The position numbers were made by a program, and so were the translations under genes. The notes under the pieces were generated by a model that was not told where the DNA came from, ran no database searches, and saw nothing but the letters and a program-made list of their open reading frames with translations. A stretch of 51,310 nucleotides of DNA, taken from assembly GCA_028823445.1 (NCBI GenBank), contig JAPKBH010000012.1:1-51310 (forward strand). The letters are read 5' to 3'. This document shows positions 3,657-12,240 of the stretch, piece after piece (within the stretch, counting starts at the first letter, position 1; every line of letters begins with the position of its first letter). Source of the DNA: Acidimicrobiales bacterium. Lineage in GTDB: Bacteria; Actinomycetota; Acidimicrobiia; Acidimicrobiales; MedAcidi-G1.

Positions 3657-4637
3657 CTACGAAAGACCCTCAATGAACTCCAACAGCAAGTCGTTTACTT
3701 GGTCGGCTGCTTCTTGTTGCAACCAGTGGCCAGCGCCTTCCAAAATATGAGTACCGCGAATACCCGGCAAGGTTTCCGAGAACCGACTAATGGCTCCGGC
3801 CCCCCAAAGGGTGGGCCCGTCTTTTTCGCCGCCGATGAACAGTGACGGCTGGACGATGGGGGCGTGATGCCATGGGCGAAGATCTACCCAGTCGTGGTCG
3901 ATGCAGCGGTAGCGGTTCAAACCACCGGTGAAACCAGCTCGGTCAAACTCGCCAACGTAAAAATCTAAATCATCATCGGTCATCCAATCAAGCGGCCCCG
4001 AAGGATACGAAAACCGGTCGCTAAGCAACCCTCCACTAGCCACGAAGCCCATAGATGTTTGACCAGGTTCGGGAGGCGGGCAGTCCCCCGATGCCGAAAA
4101 ATAGAAGCCTTCCAGCCAGCGACGCGGATTTTTTGTTATTTCTGCTTCGGCTCGCCCCGGCTCTTGAAAATAGGTGATGTAAAATTCTTCGGTTTCGCTG
4201 AAACTGGCGAATGTCTCGGAAGGCCGGTGGCTGTTGCGGGCATCGTAAGGAACGCTCAGCAAAGCCATTGCCGTAAAAACATCGGGCCGTAAACGGGCGG
4301 CGGCGGCCGCTATAGGGGAACCCCAGTCGTGACCCACGATGGTGGCCGTGGTTTCGCCAAGTGCTTCAACTACTCCAACACAATCGGCAGCCAAGTCAAT
4401 TAGCCGATAAGCGTCGAGCCCTTCTGGGGCGGCCGATGACCCATAACCGCGCACGTCTATAGCGGCGGCTCGGTACCCGGCAGCTGCCAATGCCGGCAGT
4501 TGGTTGCGCCACGAATACCAAGATTCGGGGAAGCCATGAACAAACAACACCAGTGGCCCTTCACCCATTTCGGCCACATGTATTTGGTAGCCAAAAGCGT
4601 CTACATTGTGTCGTTTTACTTCATTTAAGAAACTCAT
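3657..4637 (-). CDS. Epoxide hydrolase (alpha/beta-hydrolase)
   Basis: A 326-residue alpha/beta-hydrolase that would open epoxides to diols in the cytoplasm. Visible features are the oxyanion-hole HGFPESWYSW (34-43), the nucleophile elbow GHDWG with D104, the acid D273 in GEKDG and the base H304 in GAGHW. Cap-domain tyrosines that would hold the epoxide oxygen are candidates at Y153/Y156 and Y243. An aspartate nucleophile in GHDWG separates it from serine esterases; haloalkane dehalogenases share the Asp but not the cap tyrosines. AAAGGA lies six bases before the ATG, supporting this start. It heads a minus-strand run with the APC permease, but a shared pathway is not evident. Confidence 0.85.
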   Translation of the reverse strand: MSFLNEVKRHNVDAFGYQIHVAEMGEGPLVLFVHGFPESWYSWRNQLPALAAAGYRAAAIDVRGYGSSAAPEGLDAYRLIDLAADCVGVVEALGETTATIVGHDWGSPIAAAAARLRPDVFTAMALLSVPYDARNSHRPSETFASFSETEEFYITYFQEPGRAEAEITKNPRRWLEGFYFSASGDCPPPEPGQTSMGFVASGGLLSDRFSYPSGPLDWMTDDDLDFYVGEFDRAGFTGGLNRYRCIDHDWVDLRPWHHAPIVQPSLFIGGEKDGPTLWGAGAISRFSETLPGIRGTHILEGAGHWLQQEAADQVNDLLLEFIEGLS

Positions 4638-4749
4638 AGTTTCCTTTCATTGCCGACTCTTGTTTGCTAGCAGCGTGGCCGATGCGGGGGTGCTCTGGCA
4701 AACCAGGCCGATTTGTACTATTCTTTGAGCAGCGTAAAAAGGGGGCACT
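4638..4749. promoter_or_regulatory. Divergent intergenic region between epoxide hydrolase and Trp-repeat protein
   Basis: These 112 bases must hold the promoters of both divergent genes. The minus-strand gene has AAAGGA near 4644-4649. For the plus-strand gene AAGGGGG (about 4738-4745) precedes the GTG, and TACTAT (about 4716-4721) is a plausible -10 element; no convincing -35 is seen. No palindrome stands out. Confidence 0.4.
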
Positions 4750-7203
4750 GTGGAAAGCACAGAAAGTAAGCCAACGGGTGGGAGCATTACAGAAAACCCG
4801 AAAGCGCGTCTTGGCGCGGTAGTGCTTATTGTCGCACTTATTGCGGCAACCTGCATGTTCACGGGGGGCGACGATACGACAGAAAGCGCCCCGAGCGATG
4901 CATTTGCTGGCTTATCGCCGGTTACTGATTACGTCTTCCAGCCCGCTACCGCTCCTGGCCCTGACCCTTTTGGGCCTTCGTTCGCTAACTACACCATCAC
5001 CGTCCCCACTGAGGATCTTTCCTCTGGTTTGGTGGGCAGTGGCAGTACTGGTCTTTATGGCGGAACCGGTGAAAATGCTTGCGACGTCGGCAAAATGATT
5101 GACTTTTTGATGGCCAATCCCGATCGAGCCGCCGCTTGGGCCGGGGTTCAAGGTATCACCGTGGCGGAGATTCCCGATTACTTAAACTCACTTACCCCAG
5201 CCATTTTGATGGAGAACACTCTGGTCATAAACCATGGTTACTCCAGTGGTTCGGCTACACCGTTCTTGGCAGTGTTAGAGGCTGGCACCGCCGTGCTGGT
5301 AGATGCCGATGGCATCCCACGAGCTCGTTGTGCTTGCGGCAACCCCTTGGGGCCCGTTGAAGAACCGCCCGCCACCACGGAAACAACGACCACCACCGTG
5401 GGTGGCGAGGTAACAACGACCACCACAAGTGTCACCATCTTCACCGACTGCCCAACGACCGAAGCTCCCCCTTACGGCTTCAACCAAGAAGCAGATGGCA
5501 AGTGGACGCTTCACACTCCAGAGGGCCGCTATGTCTGGGCGCCAACAGTGCCCGGTTGGCACTCATTGCCTGATGACGGCAACATTTACGCCACGGAATC
5601 CGATGTACCCGGTTACGACGTTGTCTGCTGGCCCTGCCCGGCGGAGAGCAGCGGGGGCGACACCCCGTCTTACGACACCGACGATGACGGCGACTACATC
5701 TCTGACGAACGCATGCTGTTGAGCCTCGGTCTCGACCGAACCGAAACCTACGTGGTGATCGTCACTAAAGACCTGTACCCGGAAATCTTGACGTCAACCA
5801 TTGACCCCGATGCTATAGGGACTTTTGCTCCTGGGGCCATATCCACCATTACCCCGAATGATGCCAAAGACTACGAGCCAGAGTACGACGCCACGGAAGG
5901 CTCTTTTGATGGATGCTTCCCTCCTTGCCCTGATGACGGCACATGGGGTTGGGAAACAGGGCTTGGAAAAAACGGCACGGTTTACGTTTGGGTCGCCCCC
6001 AATGGTGACCGCTGGACTTGGAGCGACGGAGGGTGGGGGAACTTCGACACCGAGAGTGCGATTAGTTATCCTAGTTTCCGCGACTTGCCGGGTTGGAACG
6101 ATGACTGCTTCGAATGTCCAGAGTGGGGCTGGTCAGTGACCGATGGTGTATGGACTTGGACTGGTCCCGACGGAATCCCATGGGAATTCAAGAACATCAT
6201 TGACCTCTACGACCTCGGCCCCGATGAAACCATCTGGGTCTGGTCAGCCACCATCACCGACAAAGACGACGGCGAATACGTCCTCAACATCACCGACCTC
6301 CCCGGCTGGGACGACGATTGTAATGAATGTCCTGAATGGGGATGGCAACAAAATGCCGATGGTTCTTGGGTGTGGGTTGACCCCAATGGGACAACCTGGG
6401 CTTTTGAACAATATACCCTTGGGTGGCGGTGGGTATTTAATAATCCGACAGTGGTCGATACCGAATCTGGTTTCGAAAACATTGTCGATCTTCCTGGCTA
6501 CTTAGAAGACTGCAACGAATGCCCTGAATGGGGATGGGAGCAAGACGAGGACGGCATCTGGGAGTGGCGAGACCCCGATGGCAGCATCTGGATTGACACG
6601 GGTGACGGCACCTGGAAGTCAGCCTCTACCGATGTCACCTATGCCCACTGGTCAAGCCTTCCTGGTTGGTCTGATGACTGTAATGAGGGCCCACCGGAGG
6701 AAACCACCGTCGATCCTCCCAAGGACACGACTACCACGACGACCACAGCACCACAAGACTCCACTACCACCACTACCACCACAGCACCACAAGACTCCAC
6801 AACCACCACTACCACCACGACGACCACAGCACCACAAGACTCCACTACCACCACTACCACCACTGCTCCAGCTGCCTACCAACCTGCCCTTATTAACAAT
6901 CCTGACCCGAGTTGTGCAGCGCTGTACATCACTTGGAGAAACCCCGACCCCACCGCGCCCACTGCTTGGGAAGTTTTGGTGACGGTAGACGATCTCCAAA
7001 CCGACCCAGTAACAAAAACCAAAGAAACCGTCTCAGGGACGGACTTAGCGTTGGACTTCTTTCCTTATGAATTTTACGGAGGCGCCTGGCCACCGGGCGG
7101 CCAATTCAAAGTTGTGGTATCTCGGATTGATGGCGCCGCTGCTCCACTGGTCAGCACCCCATCAGACGCCTTTGTAGGGAATCTCCCCACCTACTGCTCT
7201 TAA
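4750..7203 (+). CDS. Membrane-anchored protein: DUF6777-like head, Trp/Cys repeats, poly-Thr stalk, Fn3-like end
   Basis: An 817-residue envelope protein of unknown function, starting at a GTG after AAGGGGG. Order: cytosolic basic tail; single membrane helix (about 20-38, GAVVLIVALIAATCMF); a DUF6777-like domain (about 60-202; GSGSTGLYGGTGENACD, then INHGYSSGSATPF and RARCACGNPL); a short Thr linker; then 5-6 repeats of about 64 residues from C234 to E646, with cores CPEWGW, DGxWxW, PDGxxW and LPGW-DDCNE. Residues 309-320 (D-x-D-x-D-G...S-D-x-E) look like a calcium-binding thrombospondin-3/dockerin-type loop. A poly-Thr/APQDS stalk (about 659-706) leads to a C-terminal domain (about 708-817) of fibronectin-III-like character. 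Adhesion, glycan binding or wall attachment are guesses. The DUF6777 match is from memory of the family pattern. Confidence 0.85.
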   Translation: MESTESKPTGGSITENPKARLGAVVLIVALIAATCMFTGGDDTTESAPSDAFAGLSPVTDYVFQPATAPGPDPFGPSFANYTITVPTEDLSSGLVGSGSTGLYGGTGENACDVGKMIDFLMANPDRAAAWAGVQGITVAEIPDYLNSLTPAILMENTLVINHGYSSGSATPFLAVLEAGTAVLVDADGIPRARCACGNPLGPVEEPPATTETTTTTVGGEVTTTTTSVTIFTDCPTTEAPPYGFNQEADGKWTLHTPEGRYVWAPTVPGWHSLPDDGNIYATESDVPGYDVVCWPCPAESSGGDTPSYDTDDDGDYISDERMLLSLGLDRTETYVVIVTKDLYPEILTSTIDPDAIGTFAPGAISTITPNDAKDYEPEYDATEGSFDGCFPPCPDDGTWGWETGLGKNGTVYVWVAPNGDRWTWSDGGWGNFDTESAISYPSFRDLPGWNDDCFECPEWGWSVTDGVWTWTGPDGIPWEFKNIIDLYDLGPDETIWVWSATITDKDDGEYVLNITDLPGWDDDCNECPEWGWQQNADGSWVWVDPNGTTWAFEQYTLGWRWVFNNPTVVDTESGFENIVDLPGYLEDCNECPEWGWEQDEDGIWEWRDPDGSIWIDTGDGTWKSASTDVTYAHWSSLPGWSDDCNEGPPEETTVDPPKDTTTTTTTAPQDSTTTTTTTAPQDSTTTTTTTTTTAPQDSTTTTTTTAPAAYQPALINNPDPSCAALYITWRNPDPTAPTAWEVLVTVDDLQTDPVTKTKETVSGTDLALDFFPYEFYGGAWPPGGQFKVVVSRIDGAAAPLVSTPSDAFVGNLPTYCS
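5449..6687 (+). repeat. Trp/Cys-rich protein repeats of about 64 residues
   Basis: Coding repeats inside the large surface protein. Units begin at Cys 234, 296 (divergent), 393, 456, 527 and 591 of the product. The last three are the most alike: each opens with CPEWGW, has a DGxWxW and a PDG/PNGxxW turn, and closes with LPGW or LPGY, then D-D/E-D-C-N-E. The conserved cysteines at each end could pair within or between units. The similarity of late units and divergence of early ones suggests recent duplication at the 3' side. Confidence 0.8.
6724..6870 (+). repeat. Poly-Thr/APQDS stalk coding repeat
   Basis: Low-complexity ACC/ACT/ACG tract broken three times by GCACCACAAGACTCC, coding APQDS at residues 667, 679 and 694. 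It gives T7-10 blocks typical of extended, perhaps glycosylated, stalks in exported actinobacterial proteins. Such tracts are prone to slippage, so copy number may vary between strains. Confidence 0.85.
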
Positions 7204-7275
7204 GTGACCCCCGGCTAGGGTTTTAAGCGACTCTTGCTCTAGTTTTCTTATTGACCCCTAATTAGTGAGGAAACC

Positions 7276-8598
7276 ATGGCAATCGGCCCCGGAATGCACA
7301 TCAACGACCCCAGTGACCCCAGCCTGAACTTGGCCATGTCCGAGGGGGCTCGTCCTCTCTATGATGCCGTGGTTGATTTCATCGCTACCGAAGTAGAGCC
7401 GGTTACCGCCGAATATCACCGGTTGGGTTCCATTCGCGAAGTTCATTGGGGTTACCACCCCGGGCAGATTGACATCATGGAACAACTCAAGGCCAAAGCC
7501 CGAGAAAAAGGCTTATGGAACTTTTTTCTTCCTGACGCGGAAACCGGTGAAGGGCTTTCCAATTTGGACTACGCCTACATCGCCGCAGAGTTAGGAAAAA
7601 ACCCTCTCGCCTCGGAAAGCTTCAATTGCTCGGCTCCCGATACCGGCAATATGGAAGTACTTGAACGGGTCGGCACTCCAGAACAAAAAGAACAATGGCT
7701 CACGCCATTGCTAAACGGTGAGATTCGTTCTTCCTACGTCATGACCGAACCCGATGTGGCCTCTTCTGATGCGAAGAATTTGTCTTGCCAAGCAATATTG
7801 GATGGTGAAGAATGGGTTATCAACGGCACCAAGTATTACGCCTCGGGGGCCGGCGATCCACGCTGCAAGATTTTGATTGTCATGGTGCAAACCAACCAAG
7901 ATGGGCCACCCCATCGCCGCCAATCACAGATTCTGGTGCCTATTGATACTCCCGGAGTAACTGTTGACTTCGGTATGAAAGTTTTTGGCGATGATGACGC
8001 CCCCCACGGACACATGCATCTCACCTTTAAAGACTGTCGGGTGCCGGCCGCCAACCTTTTGTTAGGCGAAGGACGGGGCTTTGAAATTTCACAACTACGG
8101 CTCGGCCCAGGCCGCATTCATCACTGCATGCGCTCCATTGGGGCTGCCGAGCGGGCCGTGGAATTAATGGTACGCCGTGGCCTACACCGCGAAGCTTTTG
8201 GCAAAACCATCCTCAAACTCGGCAAAAATATGGAAGTGGTTTCGCGAGCCCGCATTGAAATTGAAGCCATGCGCCTCATGGTGTTGCGAGCCGCCAAAGC
8301 CATGGACACCATGGGCAATGCTGAGGCCCGGGTGTGGATCAGCGCCGTTAAAGCCATGGTCCCCGAAAAGGTGTGTCACATCATTGATGAAGCCATTCAA
8401 ATGCACGGCGCCACCGGTATTTCTCAGTGGACTCCCCTAGCCAAGCTTTATACCTCGCAGCGAACCTTACGACTGGCCGACGGCCCCGACGAAGTACATC
8501 ACTTTGTGGTAGCCCGCTTTGAGTCAGGCCGTTACGGCGACGGCCCTGGCCCGGTTCCCATGTTAGAAAACACCGGCCACATTTTTAGCGGCCCGTAA
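7276..8598 (+). CDS. Acyl-CoA dehydrogenase, ACAD10/11-like
   Basis: A 440-residue flavoenzyme expected to form the alpha-beta double bond of an acyl-CoA in beta-oxidation. It has the ACAD N-terminal helical domain, the middle-domain flavin signature YVMTEPDVASSD (154-165), a long helical C-terminal domain with the R280...GAAERAVELM stretch, and HGATGIS (377-383). The segment near the usual catalytic base reads ADGPDEVHH (401-409), the form seen in ACAD10/11-type enzymes, which have Asp rather than the classical Glu. GTGAGG precedes the ATG. The alkylsulfatase gene starts two bases after the stop, so the two are probably co-translated and may act on the same alkyl chains. The chain-length preference is unknown. 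Confidence 0.9.
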   Translation: MAIGPGMHINDPSDPSLNLAMSEGARPLYDAVVDFIATEVEPVTAEYHRLGSIREVHWGYHPGQIDIMEQLKAKAREKGLWNFFLPDAETGEGLSNLDYAYIAAELGKNPLASESFNCSAPDTGNMEVLERVGTPEQKEQWLTPLLNGEIRSSYVMTEPDVASSDAKNLSCQAILDGEEWVINGTKYYASGAGDPRCKILIVMVQTNQDGPPHRRQSQILVPIDTPGVTVDFGMKVFGDDDAPHGHMHLTFKDCRVPAANLLLGEGRGFEISQLRLGPGRIHHCMRSIGAAERAVELMVRRGLHREAFGKTILKLGKNMEVVSRARIEIEAMRLMVLRAAKAMDTMGNAEARVWISAVKAMVPEKVCHIIDEAIQMHGATGISQWTPLAKLYTSQRTLRLADGPDEVHHFVVARFESGRYGDGPGPVPMLENTGHIFSGP

Positions 8599-8600
8599 AC

Positions 8601-10496
8601 ATGCCTGAACAACACACGCGAAAAATTCTCCAAGATTTTTCTGCATCTTTGCCTGACGATGACGGTACAGACGCCGCCAACGTAGCGCGGGGTTTTCTCG
8701 GAACCAGAGCAGAGCCAATCATTGAACGAGACCAGCCTTCGGCATGGCAACCTGCCGCTTTTGATCTCTCGCGCTCTGACTTCGTAACCGGCGCCGCCCC
8801 TAGCACCGTAAACCCAGCCTTATGGCGACAAGCTGGTTTTAATGCGCAACACGGCCTTTACGAAATCTGTGAAGGTATCTGGCAGGTTCGAGGTTTTGAT
8901 ATTTCAACCATCACTTTTATTGCTGGTGACACCGGTTGGATAATCATTGACCCCTTAACCACCGCGGAAACCGCTCGTGCTGCTTTTGCCTTGGTTACCG
9001 ATCATCTTGGCCAGCGGCCAGTCAAGGCTGTCATCTATACCCACTCCCACGTAGATCACTACGGCGGCATTTTGGGGGTAATAAGCCCCGAACAAGTGGC
9101 CTCTGGGAAAATCCCTATCGTGGCTCCTGAGGGCTTTATGGCCGAGGCGGTCAGTGAAAACATTATCGCCGGGCCCGCTATGGGCCGTCGAGCCGTTTAT
9201 CAGTTCGGTATTTTGTTGCCGTGGGACGAAAAGGGCCATGTTGATACCGGGTTAGGCAAGGGAGCGGCTACCGGGTCCACCGCTTTGGTGCCGCCCAACG
9301 TTGAAATTACTGAAACCGGGCAAGAGTTGACCCTCGATGGCGTGCGGGTGGAGTTTCAACTCACTCCTGAGAGTGAAGCACCAGCAGAGATGCATTTCTA
9401 TTTTCCCGACTTCAAGGCACTGTGCATGGCCGAAAACTGTACGTCCACCATGCACAACGTATTGACCTTGCGGGGTGCTTTAGTGCGTGATGCCCTTATG
9501 TGGAGCCGCTATATAGACGAAGCCCTGGACCGCTGGGGAAAAGAAGCTGATGTAGTTTTTGCCAGCCACGGTTGGCCACATTGGGGCAACGACAACGTGC
9601 AGGGTTACTTGACTCGCCAACGCGACCTCTACCGCTGGACGCACGATCAAGCGGTTCGGTTGCTCAACTTGGGCCACACACCCGATGAGATAGCGGCCCG
9701 GGTAGACATGCCAAAGCGTCTCTGGGAAGACTGGCTGTGCCATGGTTATTACGGCACCATGAGCCACAACGTACGGGCTATTTACCAACGCTATTTGGGG
9801 TGGTACGACGGCCACCCGTCAAGCCTGCACCCCTATGAACCGACCGAAGCAGCTACCCGCTATGTGGAGTTCATGGGAGGCATGGATCGCCTTTTAGAAC
9901 AGGCTCAGGTTTCTTTTGAGCAGGGGGACTACCGCTGGGTTGCTCAGGTGCTTCGCCATGCCGTGTTCGCTGACCCCACTAATCAGGCCGCCCGCGACCT
10001 TCAAGCAGCATCCTTTGAACAATTGGCTTACCAAGCAGAGTCTGGGGTATGGCGCGATGTGTACCTGTCTGGTGCTCAAGAATTGCGGCAAGGCACACTA
10101 GACCTCCCGGTCATTCGCCGTCCTCCAGCCGATGTGGCGAGCGGGCTTTCGGTGCAACAAATCTTTGATTATCTGGCAGTCCAGATCGACGGCCCGGTGG
10201 CCGATGCTTTGGGTTCGCTGCGTATCAACTGGGTATTTTCTGATGATGAGCCAACGGTGCGGATAACCCTCTCCAATGGGACCTTACATGCGGTACCGGG
10301 TCGCCACAATGAACTTCCTGATGCCACCATCACCTGTAGCCGTGCACAACTTGAACGCTTGGTTTCCACTGGCGAGGGGTTGGCCACATTGGTAGACGAA
10401 GGTCAAGCCACCATTGAAGGTGACCAACACCGGGTCTTGGCTTTGTGGGATACTTTCACTGAATTTCCGTTGTTTTTTAACATAATTGAGCCTTAA
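8601..10496 (+). CDS. Alkylsulfatase (SdsA-type, metallo-beta-lactamase fold)
   Basis: A 631-residue class III sulfatase that hydrolyses alkyl sulfate esters. The metal site is intact: H148-x-H150-x-D152-H153 in THSHVDHYGG, E278 in MAENC, H285, and H323 in ASHGWPHWG. A helical dimerisation region follows and the C-terminus (about 505-631) is the SCP2-like domain of this family. Unlike secreted SdsA1 it has no visible signal peptide, so a cytoplasmic location is likely. It follows the acyl-CoA dehydrogenase by two bases, suggesting that released fatty alcohols enter oxidation; this link is inference. A second, degenerate paralogue lies at 43500-45236. Confidence 0.9.
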   Translation: MPEQHTRKILQDFSASLPDDDGTDAANVARGFLGTRAEPIIERDQPSAWQPAAFDLSRSDFVTGAAPSTVNPALWRQAGFNAQHGLYEICEGIWQVRGFDISTITFIAGDTGWIIIDPLTTAETARAAFALVTDHLGQRPVKAVIYTHSHVDHYGGILGVISPEQVASGKIPIVAPEGFMAEAVSENIIAGPAMGRRAVYQFGILLPWDEKGHVDTGLGKGAATGSTALVPPNVEITETGQELTLDGVRVEFQLTPESEAPAEMHFYFPDFKALCMAENCTSTMHNVLTLRGALVRDALMWSRYIDEALDRWGKEADVVFASHGWPHWGNDNVQGYLTRQRDLYRWTHDQAVRLLNLGHTPDEIAARVDMPKRLWEDWLCHGYYGTMSHNVRAIYQRYLGWYDGHPSSLHPYEPTEAATRYVEFMGGMDRLLEQAQVSFEQGDYRWVAQVLRHAVFADPTNQAARDLQAASFEQLAYQAESGVWRDVYLSGAQELRQGTLDLPVIRRPPADVASGLSVQQIFDYLAVQIDGPVADALGSLRINWVFSDDEPTVRITLSNGTLHAVPGRHNELPDATITCSRAQLERLVSTGEGLATLVDEGQATIEGDQHRVLALWDTFTEFPLFFNIIEP

Positions 10497-10536
10497 CCGC
10501 CCGGCAAAGCTTTTTGATCTGTGTCACAATGATCAG

Positions 10537-12240
10537 ATGCGAAGTGTAAAAATCTTTCCTTGGGCGGCCCTACTGATTAGCGTATTACTAGTAGCGGGCT
10601 GTAGCGGCAGCAGCGACACTCAACCACCGACTACCACCTTGGACGTTACCCCAGCGACCACTGCCTCTCCCGTTGAGACCACTGCCCCCATGGCCACCAG
10701 CACCTCCACGACCACGACCACGACCACGACCTTGTCCCCTGCCGAACAGTATTCTCTCCTCCTGGAAAAAGTTTCCACTTGCCAAAAGCAGCCCTACGAG
10801 ATTTCACCGGTCACCGGTCAAGCCGATTGGCCCCATGAATTTCTTTCGGTAAGCACCTCGTGTGAGGTACAAAACCCTGATGACAATTTTGCTCTCTTTA
10901 TGAACGTTTCTTGGTTGCGGGTAGCAGGTACGGGGGTTGATCAAGCCGTTAACGACACGCTTGAAGAACTCGGTATCGGTATGGCGGAAATGTTTCTTGA
11001 GGACACCTTGTCCTTTGCCGGTGATTTTGATCGAGATGCTGGATCACTCCCAGAAATCGGGTGGTCTATCGACGTATCCTTTGACTCGCCTCGCCTGCTA
11101 GGGGTCACCATAACTAGCGGCACCTTTTGGTACGGGCGGGCCGGCTTGGAATACGCTTCACAACAAATACTTTTTGACCTGGCCACCGGCCAACAGTTGT
11201 CCTCTACTGACATTTTCTTGCCGGGTGTGGACTGGGCCGGCCAATTGGCTCCCTTGGTGGCGGCGGCAGTTCTTGAGAAATACCCCGATGCTCAAGACGC
11301 CGGTTGGGACTTAACCGAAGAGTTAGACAACTTTTCACCTACCCCCGAGGGCCTTACCTTTACTTTGTTTGCCCCGCTGTTTCGCTTATTTGAAGACCCA
11401 GTGGTGACCATTGATTGGGCCGAAGTCAGCGACCTCTTAGCCACCGATGGCCCGTTGTCCAATTTCATCGTGGCCCCACCCAATCTTGATGTTTTTACTG
11501 ACGAAATTCTTTCCTGCCGTAACGAAAACCCCGCCATTACTCCAGTAGAACACCAAGCAGGTTGGGCAAATACCTATACCTCAAAGTCCATTTCTTGTAG
11601 CCATCCCAATGAGTGGGGTGGGGTAGATTTTGAGGCTCAATGGGTGCAAGTCGCTGGCCCCTTAGCCAGCCAAACCATCAACGCCGCCATTGAGAGTTAC
11701 CTCAACACCGAACTTGATCGGTACATCGAGTGGGCTATTGAAACTGCTGACTACAACATGACCACCAACTGGACGCCGGGGAGTGGTTCGTTTGCTCATT
11801 GGGGCACCGAGGTCACTATGGACTCCCCTAACTTGGTCAGCGTAGTTATTCGCCACTGGTCTTATTTCTCCGGTGCCGCTAACGGAAACGAGTCGGCTCA
11901 GTCTTTTAACTTCAACGCCGAAACCGGGCAACTCATTACCTTGGAGTCTCTTTTCTCTGCGGATAACGATTGGGTGGACAGCCTCGGCCAGTTAGCTTTT
12001 GACTCCCTTAATTCTGAAGTTGAGGGTATAGAGCCTTTGGAAAACTGGCAAGGGTGGCCGTCGCCCACGGTGTTCGGCCATTTCGCACTTAGCCCCGGTG
12101 GTTTGCAACTCAACTTTGACGAGTACTCGGTGGCCCCGGGCTATCTCGGTGGACTTTCGGTCACCCTCCCCTGGCCCAGCCTTGGTTCGATTATTGACAT
12201 TGGGGGCCCTATGGGGTACCTCTACCCCATGGTTGACTAA
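10537..12240 (+). CDS. Lipoprotein with two tandem RsiV/DUF3298-like domains
   Basis: A 567-residue predicted lipoprotein. The start is taken at the ATG that begins a typical signal peptide ending in lipobox LVAGC (C22); a TTG further upstream would run inside the sulfatase gene and add a tail unlike a signal peptide. A Thr/Pro linker (about 30-68) leads to two homologous halves (about 77-305 and 322-565). Each begins with a Cys pair (C82/C109; C327/C354), continues with W-x-Q/R-VAG, and contains the DUF3298 hallmarks F-D/N-x-x-TGQ, a D-W segment, and T/S-PEGL or SPGGL with a following F or L core. RsiV-like domains bind lysozyme or sense envelope stress in other bacteria; that role is not established here. 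No sigma factor is adjacent. Confidence 0.75.
   Translation: MRSVKIFPWAALLISVLLVAGCSGSSDTQPPTTTLDVTPATTASPVETTAPMATSTSTTTTTTTTLSPAEQYSLLLEKVSTCQKQPYEISPVTGQADWPHEFLSVSTSCEVQNPDDNFALFMNVSWLRVAGTGVDQAVNDTLEELGIGMAEMFLEDTLSFAGDFDRDAGSLPEIGWSIDVSFDSPRLLGVTITSGTFWYGRAGLEYASQQILFDLATGQQLSSTDIFLPGVDWAGQLAPLVAAAVLEKYPDAQDAGWDLTEELDNFSPTPEGLTFTLFAPLFRLFEDPVVTIDWAEVSDLLATDGPLSNFIVAPPNLDVFTDEILSCRNENPAITPVEHQAGWANTYTSKSISCSHPNEWGGVDFEAQWVQVAGPLASQTINAAIESYLNTELDRYIEWAIETADYNMTTNWTPGSGSFAHWGTEVTMDSPNLVSVVIRHWSYFSGAANGNESAQSFNFNAETGQLITLESLFSADNDWVDSLGQLAFDSLNSEVEGIEPLENWQGWPSPTVFGHFALSPGGLQLNFDEYSVAPGYLGGLSVTLPWPSLGSIIDIGGPMGYLYPMVD

What the first reader, a model, noticed from the sequence alone, without database searches (positions are those of the whole stretch)
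4750..7203. Surface protein with a new-looking Trp/Cys repeat
About 64-residue units with CPEWGW, DGxWxW, PDGxxW and LPGW-DDCNE cores repeat 5-6 times between a DUF6777-like head and a Thr-rich stalk. I know no named family with this repeat. The dense aromatic residues suggest carbohydrate or peptidoglycan binding, and the Cys pairs suggest a disulfide-stitched rod.
Basis: partly seen in the sequence, partly recalled or inferred. Interest (0 to 1): 0.72.

Follow-up and report, generated by a model that had tools for sequence, protein, structure and literature searches.

The report
Trp/Cys-repeat surface protein, marine Acidimicrobiales
A marine actinobacterium carries a membrane-anchored surface protein built from a tandem repeat, rich in tryptophan and closed by paired cysteines, that matches no family in the libraries searched; it recurs with changing copy number in relatives of the same order, and its partner is unknown.

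Summary
The repeat is real. The 817-aa ORF (4750-7203) has an N-terminal membrane anchor, a DUF6777 domain (PF20568, E 2.5e-40), five Trp/Cys units (four strong at residues 390-644, one degenerate at 239-293), a Thr-rich linker and a C-terminal beta domain. A profile built only from other genomes' units finds all five; 1000 shuffles give none. The Cys-flanked stretch 296-389 is not a unit.

No Pfam, NCBIfam, PHROGs or PDB sequence match; no significant fold match. Relatives with 3-7 strong units occur across Acidimicrobiales, behind DUF6777; none turned up outside that order. Every complete array has an even number of cysteines with strictly alternating long/short spacing, so disulfides most likely close each unit rather than stitch units together. 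AlphaFold2 models each unit as a four-stranded antiparallel sheet (three units: mean pLDDT 81, pTM 0.75).

Two corrections: DUF6777 is the membrane-proximal base, not the distal head; and the 'stalk' carries a tip domain, not a cell-wall anchor. Carbohydrate binding is plausible but untested; much of the Trp may be hydrophobic core. New lead: DUF6777 elsewhere is the extracellular part of a Ser/Thr kinase or lies next to one.

The parts
4750..7203 (+). ORF of the DUF6777 / Trp-Cys repeat protein (817 aa, GTG start)
   Evidence: homologous over the DUF6777 and repeat parts in the same genus with conserved neighbours
4798..4857 (+). N-terminal hydrophobic segment (res 17-36), membrane anchor or signal, N-in/C-out by the positive-inside pattern
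   Evidence: direct reading (KAR-LGAVVLIVALIAATCMF-TGGDD); helix 17-36 (low confidence); homologue L021 has a zinc-ribbon before, and DUF6777 after, its membrane segment
5041..5388 (+). DUF6777 domain (PF20568), profile positions 6-122 of 163; its last ~40 positions are missing
   Evidence: E 2.5e-40, 138.4 bits (cut-off 27)
5449..5628 (+). degenerate Trp/Cys unit 1 (Cys234-Cys293)
   Evidence: found by profiles of units (E 7e-5, 6e-5, 2e-12)
5635..5916 (+). Cys-flanked non-repeat segment (Cys296-Cys389), with DTDDDGDYISDE, an EF-hand-like loop by sequence
   Evidence: not a repeat unit; a segment of this kind is flanked by Cys in the homologues; calcium binding not tested
5917..6108 (+). Trp/Cys unit 2 (res 390-453)
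6109..6321 (+). Trp/Cys unit 3 (res 454-524)
   Evidence: AlphaFold2
6322..6513 (+). Trp/Cys unit 4 (res 525-588)
   Evidence: AlphaFold2
6514..6681 (+). Trp/Cys unit 5 (res 589-644)
   Evidence: AlphaFold2
6700..6873 (+). Thr/Pro-rich linker ('stalk')
   Evidence: direct reading; replaced by PTPTPEP-type or DPDP-type linkers in other genera
6886..7200 (+). C-terminal ~105-aa beta domain with a Cys at each end (C722, C816); no Pfam match; homologous to the tips of L025/L027/L029/L032

Best explanation
A membrane-anchored, extracytoplasmic modular protein. Shown from sequence: anchor, DUF6777, a tandem array of Trp/Cys units, a Thr-rich linker and a C-terminal beta domain; the units are homologous and the array changes length between relatives. 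Inferred from Cys parity and structure prediction: each unit is a small four-stranded antiparallel beta-sheet with a core of conserved Trp, closed by one disulfide between its first and last residues, and successive units hold fixed relative positions, so the array is a stiff, acidic spacer. Inferred: the array lifts the C-terminal domain away from the membrane and forms the contact surface of the protein, for attachment or for sensing of the envelope or surroundings; unit gain and loss tunes its length and surface. The ligand is unknown.
For: Units verified by an independent profile and shuffles. Same architecture in relatives: MedAcidi-G2B (956+ aa, 7 strong units), AG-410-I20 (1109 aa, 7), L024 (7), L025 (6), L027/L029 (5), G323 (3), and divergent arrays in G133, G291 and G070. 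Cys counts in complete arrays are 10, 12, 14, 16, 18, 20 - always even - with long and short gaps alternating; the first and last Cys have no CxxC partner, so pairing within units is the arrangement that leaves none over. C, W and LP positions invariant in 31 units. AlphaFold2 of three units with 30 aligned rows: mean pLDDT 81.4, pTM 0.75, the same strand pattern in the second and third unit. Array turnover: the last four units of L024 and AG-410-I20 correspond one to one, the proximal units and those of the window do not. Strongly acidic: net charge -44 over 253 residues, 11.9% Trp.
Against: No coordinates were available to measure Cys-Cys distances or Trp exposure. Surface location, disulfides and function are untested. 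The full-length model is poor outside the repeats (mean pLDDT 43), so the geometry of base, linker and tip is unknown. The gene has no functionally related neighbour.
Confidence: 0.55

Rival explanations
1. The units are glycan-binding repeats (peptidoglycan, teichoic-type or algal polysaccharide): exposed Trp of the beta-hairpins stack on sugars, as in choline- or glucan-binding repeats, and several units give avidity.
For: Trp density and the GW...DGxWxW...PxGxxW hairpin grammar recall, from memory, choline/glucan-binding repeats. Weak Foldseek rows include C. difficile CROPs and a streptococcal glucosyltransferase (E 0.1-1, probability under 0.1). Marine particle and phytoplankton glycans would be a natural target for an epipelagic bacterium.
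Against: No sequence match to any binding-repeat family at E up to 10. Aromatic residues (44) outnumber aliphatic ones (35) in the array, so the invariant Trp may simply be the core of each small domain. The Foldseek rows are not significant.
Confidence: 0.25
2. The protein is the extracytoplasmic half of a signalling system: DUF6777 is a sensor or protein-contact module for Ser/Thr kinases, and the repeats are its ligand-binding extension.
For: In G389 DUF6777 is the extracellular part of a kinase: Pkinase 11-260 (E 4.9e-39), then DUF6777 493-653 (E 1.2e-58) in one ORF. In G448, G497 and G371 a kinase domain is encoded about 2.3 kb upstream on the same strand. A Rhodococcus plasmid has DUF6777 beside a PknD-annotated kinase.
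Against: The window protein has no kinase domain, and the genome's two strong kinase matches are on other contigs (C18, C9). The three genomes with an adjacent kinase share one genus and are not independent. The repeat-bearing members lack the last ~40 profile positions of DUF6777.
Confidence: 0.15
3. The units are blades of a beta-propeller (four-stranded meanders, one per unit).
For: Four-stranded units of 50-70 aa; many of the weak Foldseek rows are propellers (GH43, GH32, GH130, Sec13).
Against: Strong-unit counts vary from 3 to 7, which suits an open array better than a closed ring; a non-repeat segment interrupts the array; TM-scores of those rows are 0.12-0.17 with rmsd mostly 15-20 A; VIA-align finds nothing at Z 5 or above.
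Confidence: 0.05

Closest known systems
DUF6777 (Pfam PF20568)
   Same: Anchor plus the GLYGG ... CACGNPL core, well over the Pfam cut-off
   Different: Repeat-bearing members match only up to about position 112-122 of 163; the array follows where other members have the C-terminal W-x-[GY]-[FY] segment and a disordered, PPC-like or FN3 tail
Ser/Thr kinase with extracytoplasmic DUF6777 (G389, 784-aa frame)
   Same: DUF6777 outside the membrane, linked to an N-terminal cytoplasmic part
   Different: The window protein has no kinase domain and no kinase neighbour
Choline/glucan-binding repeats (CW_binding_1 type)
   Same: Tandem aromatic beta-hairpin units at the surface (from memory)
   Different: No Pfam or PDB sequence match; units here are about three times as long, carry two invariant Cys and end in LPGW-xx-C
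Fibronectin type III (PF00041)
   Same: AG-410-I20's homologue has a true fn3 near its C-terminus (E 3.4e-9)
   Different: The window's own C-terminal domain does not match fn3; the tip domain is exchanged between homologues

Membership tests
DUF6777 (PF20568) | Match over the Pfam gathering score | tested here: met
   138.4 bits against cut-off 27
DUF6777 (PF20568) | Full-length domain (163 positions) | tested here: not met
   Positions 6-122 only; the same truncation in L063, L064, L065, L092 and L029
Choline/glucan-binding repeat | Sequence-profile match of a unit | tested here: not met
   Ten units scanned singly against Pfam at E up to 10: no such family; no PDB sequence hit of that kind
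Choline/glucan-binding repeat | Beta-hairpin solenoid fold | tested here: inconclusive
   Only non-significant Foldseek rows
Choline/glucan-binding repeat | Binds choline, glucan or another glycan | not testable with these tools
   Needs a binding assay
Beta-propeller | Closed ring of four-stranded blades | tested here: inconclusive
   Variable unit number; no significant fold match
Receptor Ser/Thr kinase (PknB/PknD type) | Kinase domain in the protein | tested here: not met
   Pfam scan of the whole protein
Sortase-anchored surface protein | C-terminal LPXTG plus hydrophobic tail | tested here: not met
   The protein ends ...SDAFVGNLPTYCS
Fibronectin type III tip | PF00041 match at the C-terminus | tested here: not met
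   No fn3 in the window protein; met in L018

The most novel reading that the evidence does not exclude
A new, disulfide-closed, Trp-cored beta repeat, apparently peculiar to Acidimicrobiales, that these cells use as a length-variable adhesive or sensing array on a membrane-proximal module (DUF6777) that other actinobacteria couple to Ser/Thr kinases.
Probability: 0.35. Interest if true: 0.6.

Novelty: new variant of a known kind. Interest (0 to 1): 0.45.

Why it matters
It adds a repeat family, absent from the libraries searched, to the little-known cell surface of mostly uncultured marine Acidimicrobiales. It also gives a functional lead for DUF6777 (fusion and adjacency to Ser/Thr kinases), a domain named in none of the 5.39 million open papers searched. 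The strict Cys grammar makes the disulfide prediction directly testable with one recombinant protein.

Tried and rejected
Membership in a named repeat family: rejected by Pfam, NCBIfam, PHROGs and PDB-sequence scans. Segment 296-389 as a sixth unit: rejected. Phage origin: no match in phage records and no confirmed match in viral contigs. Operon partner: neighbours are an amino-acid permease, an alpha/beta hydrolase, an acyl-CoA dehydrogenase and an alkyl sulfatase, conserved also in sister genera that lack this gene; no link seen. Calcium loops: one canonical EF-hand-like loop in the window (0.05 expected by shuffling), but the strict pattern is not kept in all homologues, so not claimed. Fold search: nothing significant in PDB or BFVD; this does not show the fold is new. 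The full-length structure model was too poor to use. Two order-wide genome searches failed and were replaced by class and phylum samples. A first genome-collection scan with the single protein found nothing; the repeat alignment then found nine loci. Absence of the gene in G006 is not evidence of loss: its contig begins 180 bases before the neighbouring hydrolase.

Full report
What was checked. The ORF at 4750-7203 (+) is real and complete: 817 aa, GTG start. Homologous proteins occur in genomes of the same genus, with the same neighbours on both sides in AG-410-I20; identity over the three-protein alignment is 52-54%. Two of those genomes are named records, MedAcidi-G2B (JUEO01000011) and AG-410-I20 (QCKS01000005), so by the tool's kinship the window comes from the MedAcidi-G2B genus of the family MedAcidi-G1, epipelagic marine Acidimicrobiales with genomes near 1.95 Mb (PMC10205998); this genome holds 1.93 Mb.

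Architecture. Residues 17-36 form a hydrophobic segment preceded by basic and followed by acidic residues, so the C-terminal part should lie outside. Support comes from L021, whose DUF6777 protein carries a zinc-ribbon-like stretch (24.4 bits, just under the cut-off of 25) before its membrane segment, and from G133, whose homologue begins with a lipoprotein-type signal (LLIGAACSGG; judged from memory of the lipobox rule). DUF6777 covers 98-213 (E 2.5e-40). Then come a Thr-rich linker, the repeat region (234-644), a longer Thr-rich linker and a C-terminal beta domain (713-817) with a Cys at each end. There is no LPXTG motif and no C-terminal hydrophobic tail.

Repeat statistics. A profile from 44 units of other genomes finds five units in the window protein and nothing in 1000 shuffles. 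The degenerate first unit was also found by genome searches with other unit profiles (in the window; its counterpart in G003). Residues 296-389 are not a unit. In 31 aligned units the columns C, G-W, W, L-P and C are invariant, and further W, P, G and W columns are nearly so. Nucleotide identity between window units is 0.63-0.68, so the units are old and collapse in assembly is unlikely in this contig.

Cysteine grammar. In every complete array the number of Cys between the CACGNPL motif of DUF6777 and the last unit is even (10 to 20), and long gaps (46-97) alternate with short ones (2-12), apart from two extra Cys at the start of the G291 array. The odd counts in L026, L028 and L032 come from masked or truncated sequence. 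Because the first and last Cys have no CxxC partner, disulfides within units leave none unpaired, while CxxC disulfides would leave two. In G133 the short gap widens to 12 residues while the long one stays near 53, which also favours closure within the unit. This is inference, not measurement.

Structure. AlphaFold2 on units 3-5 with 30 aligned triples gave mean pLDDT 81.4 and pTM 0.75. Each unit is a four-stranded antiparallel meander; the second and third end in the same strand-and-short-helix element before the Cys pair. Foldseek and VIA-align found no significant match in PDB or BFVD. The query held three units, so a match to a single unit could have been diluted; the fold is not claimed as new.

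Distribution. A motif scan of one genome for each of 84,980 species confirmed nine loci, all from Acidimicrobiia records, including a 'Candidatus Microthrix sp.' assembly. Profile searches found units in 3 of 48 genomes of the family, 4 of 296 of the class and 3 of 396 of the phylum, the window's genome included each time. All positives lie in the same order, and every positive protein examined whose N-terminal part is held also has DUF6777. DUF6777 itself occurs in 20 of 346 genomes across the phylum, mostly without the repeats. Two distinct paralogues occur in one assembly (PBMJ, L025 and L029) and three loci in another (PAEG), where contamination is possible.

Array evolution. The last four units of L024 and AG-410-I20 pair one to one with high scores, L024 unit 1 pairs with AG-410-I20 unit 3, and the window's four strong units pair best with L024 units 1 and 3 and with late units of other genera. 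Units have therefore been gained and lost. Linker chemistry and tip domain change too: Thr-rich in this genus, PTPTP-type or DPDP-type elsewhere; fn3 in AG-410-I20.

Locus. In sister genera (G008, G009, G012) the same hydrolase - acyl-CoA dehydrogenase neighbourhood exists without this gene; in its place are a PIN-like and a ribbon-helix-helix-like ORF resembling a VapBC pair, judged from sequence by eye. Contigs of G001, G002 and G003 end inside the gene, and that of G006 begins beside the hydrolase next to where it would lie, so its apparent absence in draft genomes must be read with care.

DUF6777 and kinases. In G389 a single 784-aa frame holds a Ser/Thr kinase domain (11-260), a membrane segment and DUF6777 (493-653). 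In G448, G497 and G371, one genus, a kinase domain is encoded about 2.3 kb upstream on the same strand. In Rhodococcus sp. DMU1 the next gene is annotated PknD. This suggests that DUF6777 is an extracytoplasmic sensing or contact module. In the window's genome the kinase matches are on other contigs, so the link is not shown here.

Function. The most economical reading is a surface array that presents itself and a tip domain at a distance from the membrane. Glycan binding is a fair guess from Trp density, but in these small units, with few aliphatic residues, conserved Trp may be core. No paper in the open library names DUF6777, and two further literature searches for such a repeat returned nothing.

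Verdict. It is a new repeat family within a familiar kind of object, the modular bacterial surface protein.

Noticed in passing
L120 1029-3380 (-); L117 5545-8829: DUF6777 fused to, or beside, Ser/Thr kinases in other actinobacteria: a functional lead for a domain of unknown function.
   Followed up: partly
L114 4146-4816, L115 3866-4518, L113 4000-4670; window site 4637-7276: Sister genera carry a VapBC-like PIN + ribbon-helix-helix pair at the site where this genus carries the repeat-protein gene: a possible hot spot of gene exchange.
   Followed up: partly
L008/L020, L007/L019, L005/L017, L116: Draft contigs of four genomes of the genus end inside or right beside this gene, probably because of the repeats and the Thr-codon runs.
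   Followed up: partly
window 5635-5916: Cys-flanked acidic segment with an EF-hand-like loop (DTDDDGDYISDE) and a YVVI strand; Cys-flanked segments of this kind occur in the homologues, in different array positions (e.g. L065 res 659-722).
   Followed up: partly
window 10486-12240: Neighbouring lipoprotein-like ORF with a DUF3298 match (E 5.9e-10) and its own Thr-rich linker.
   Followed up: no
L025 and L029 (PBMJ); L024, L026, L027 (PAEG): Two or three paralogues of the repeat protein in single marine Acidimicrobiaceae assemblies.
   Followed up: no
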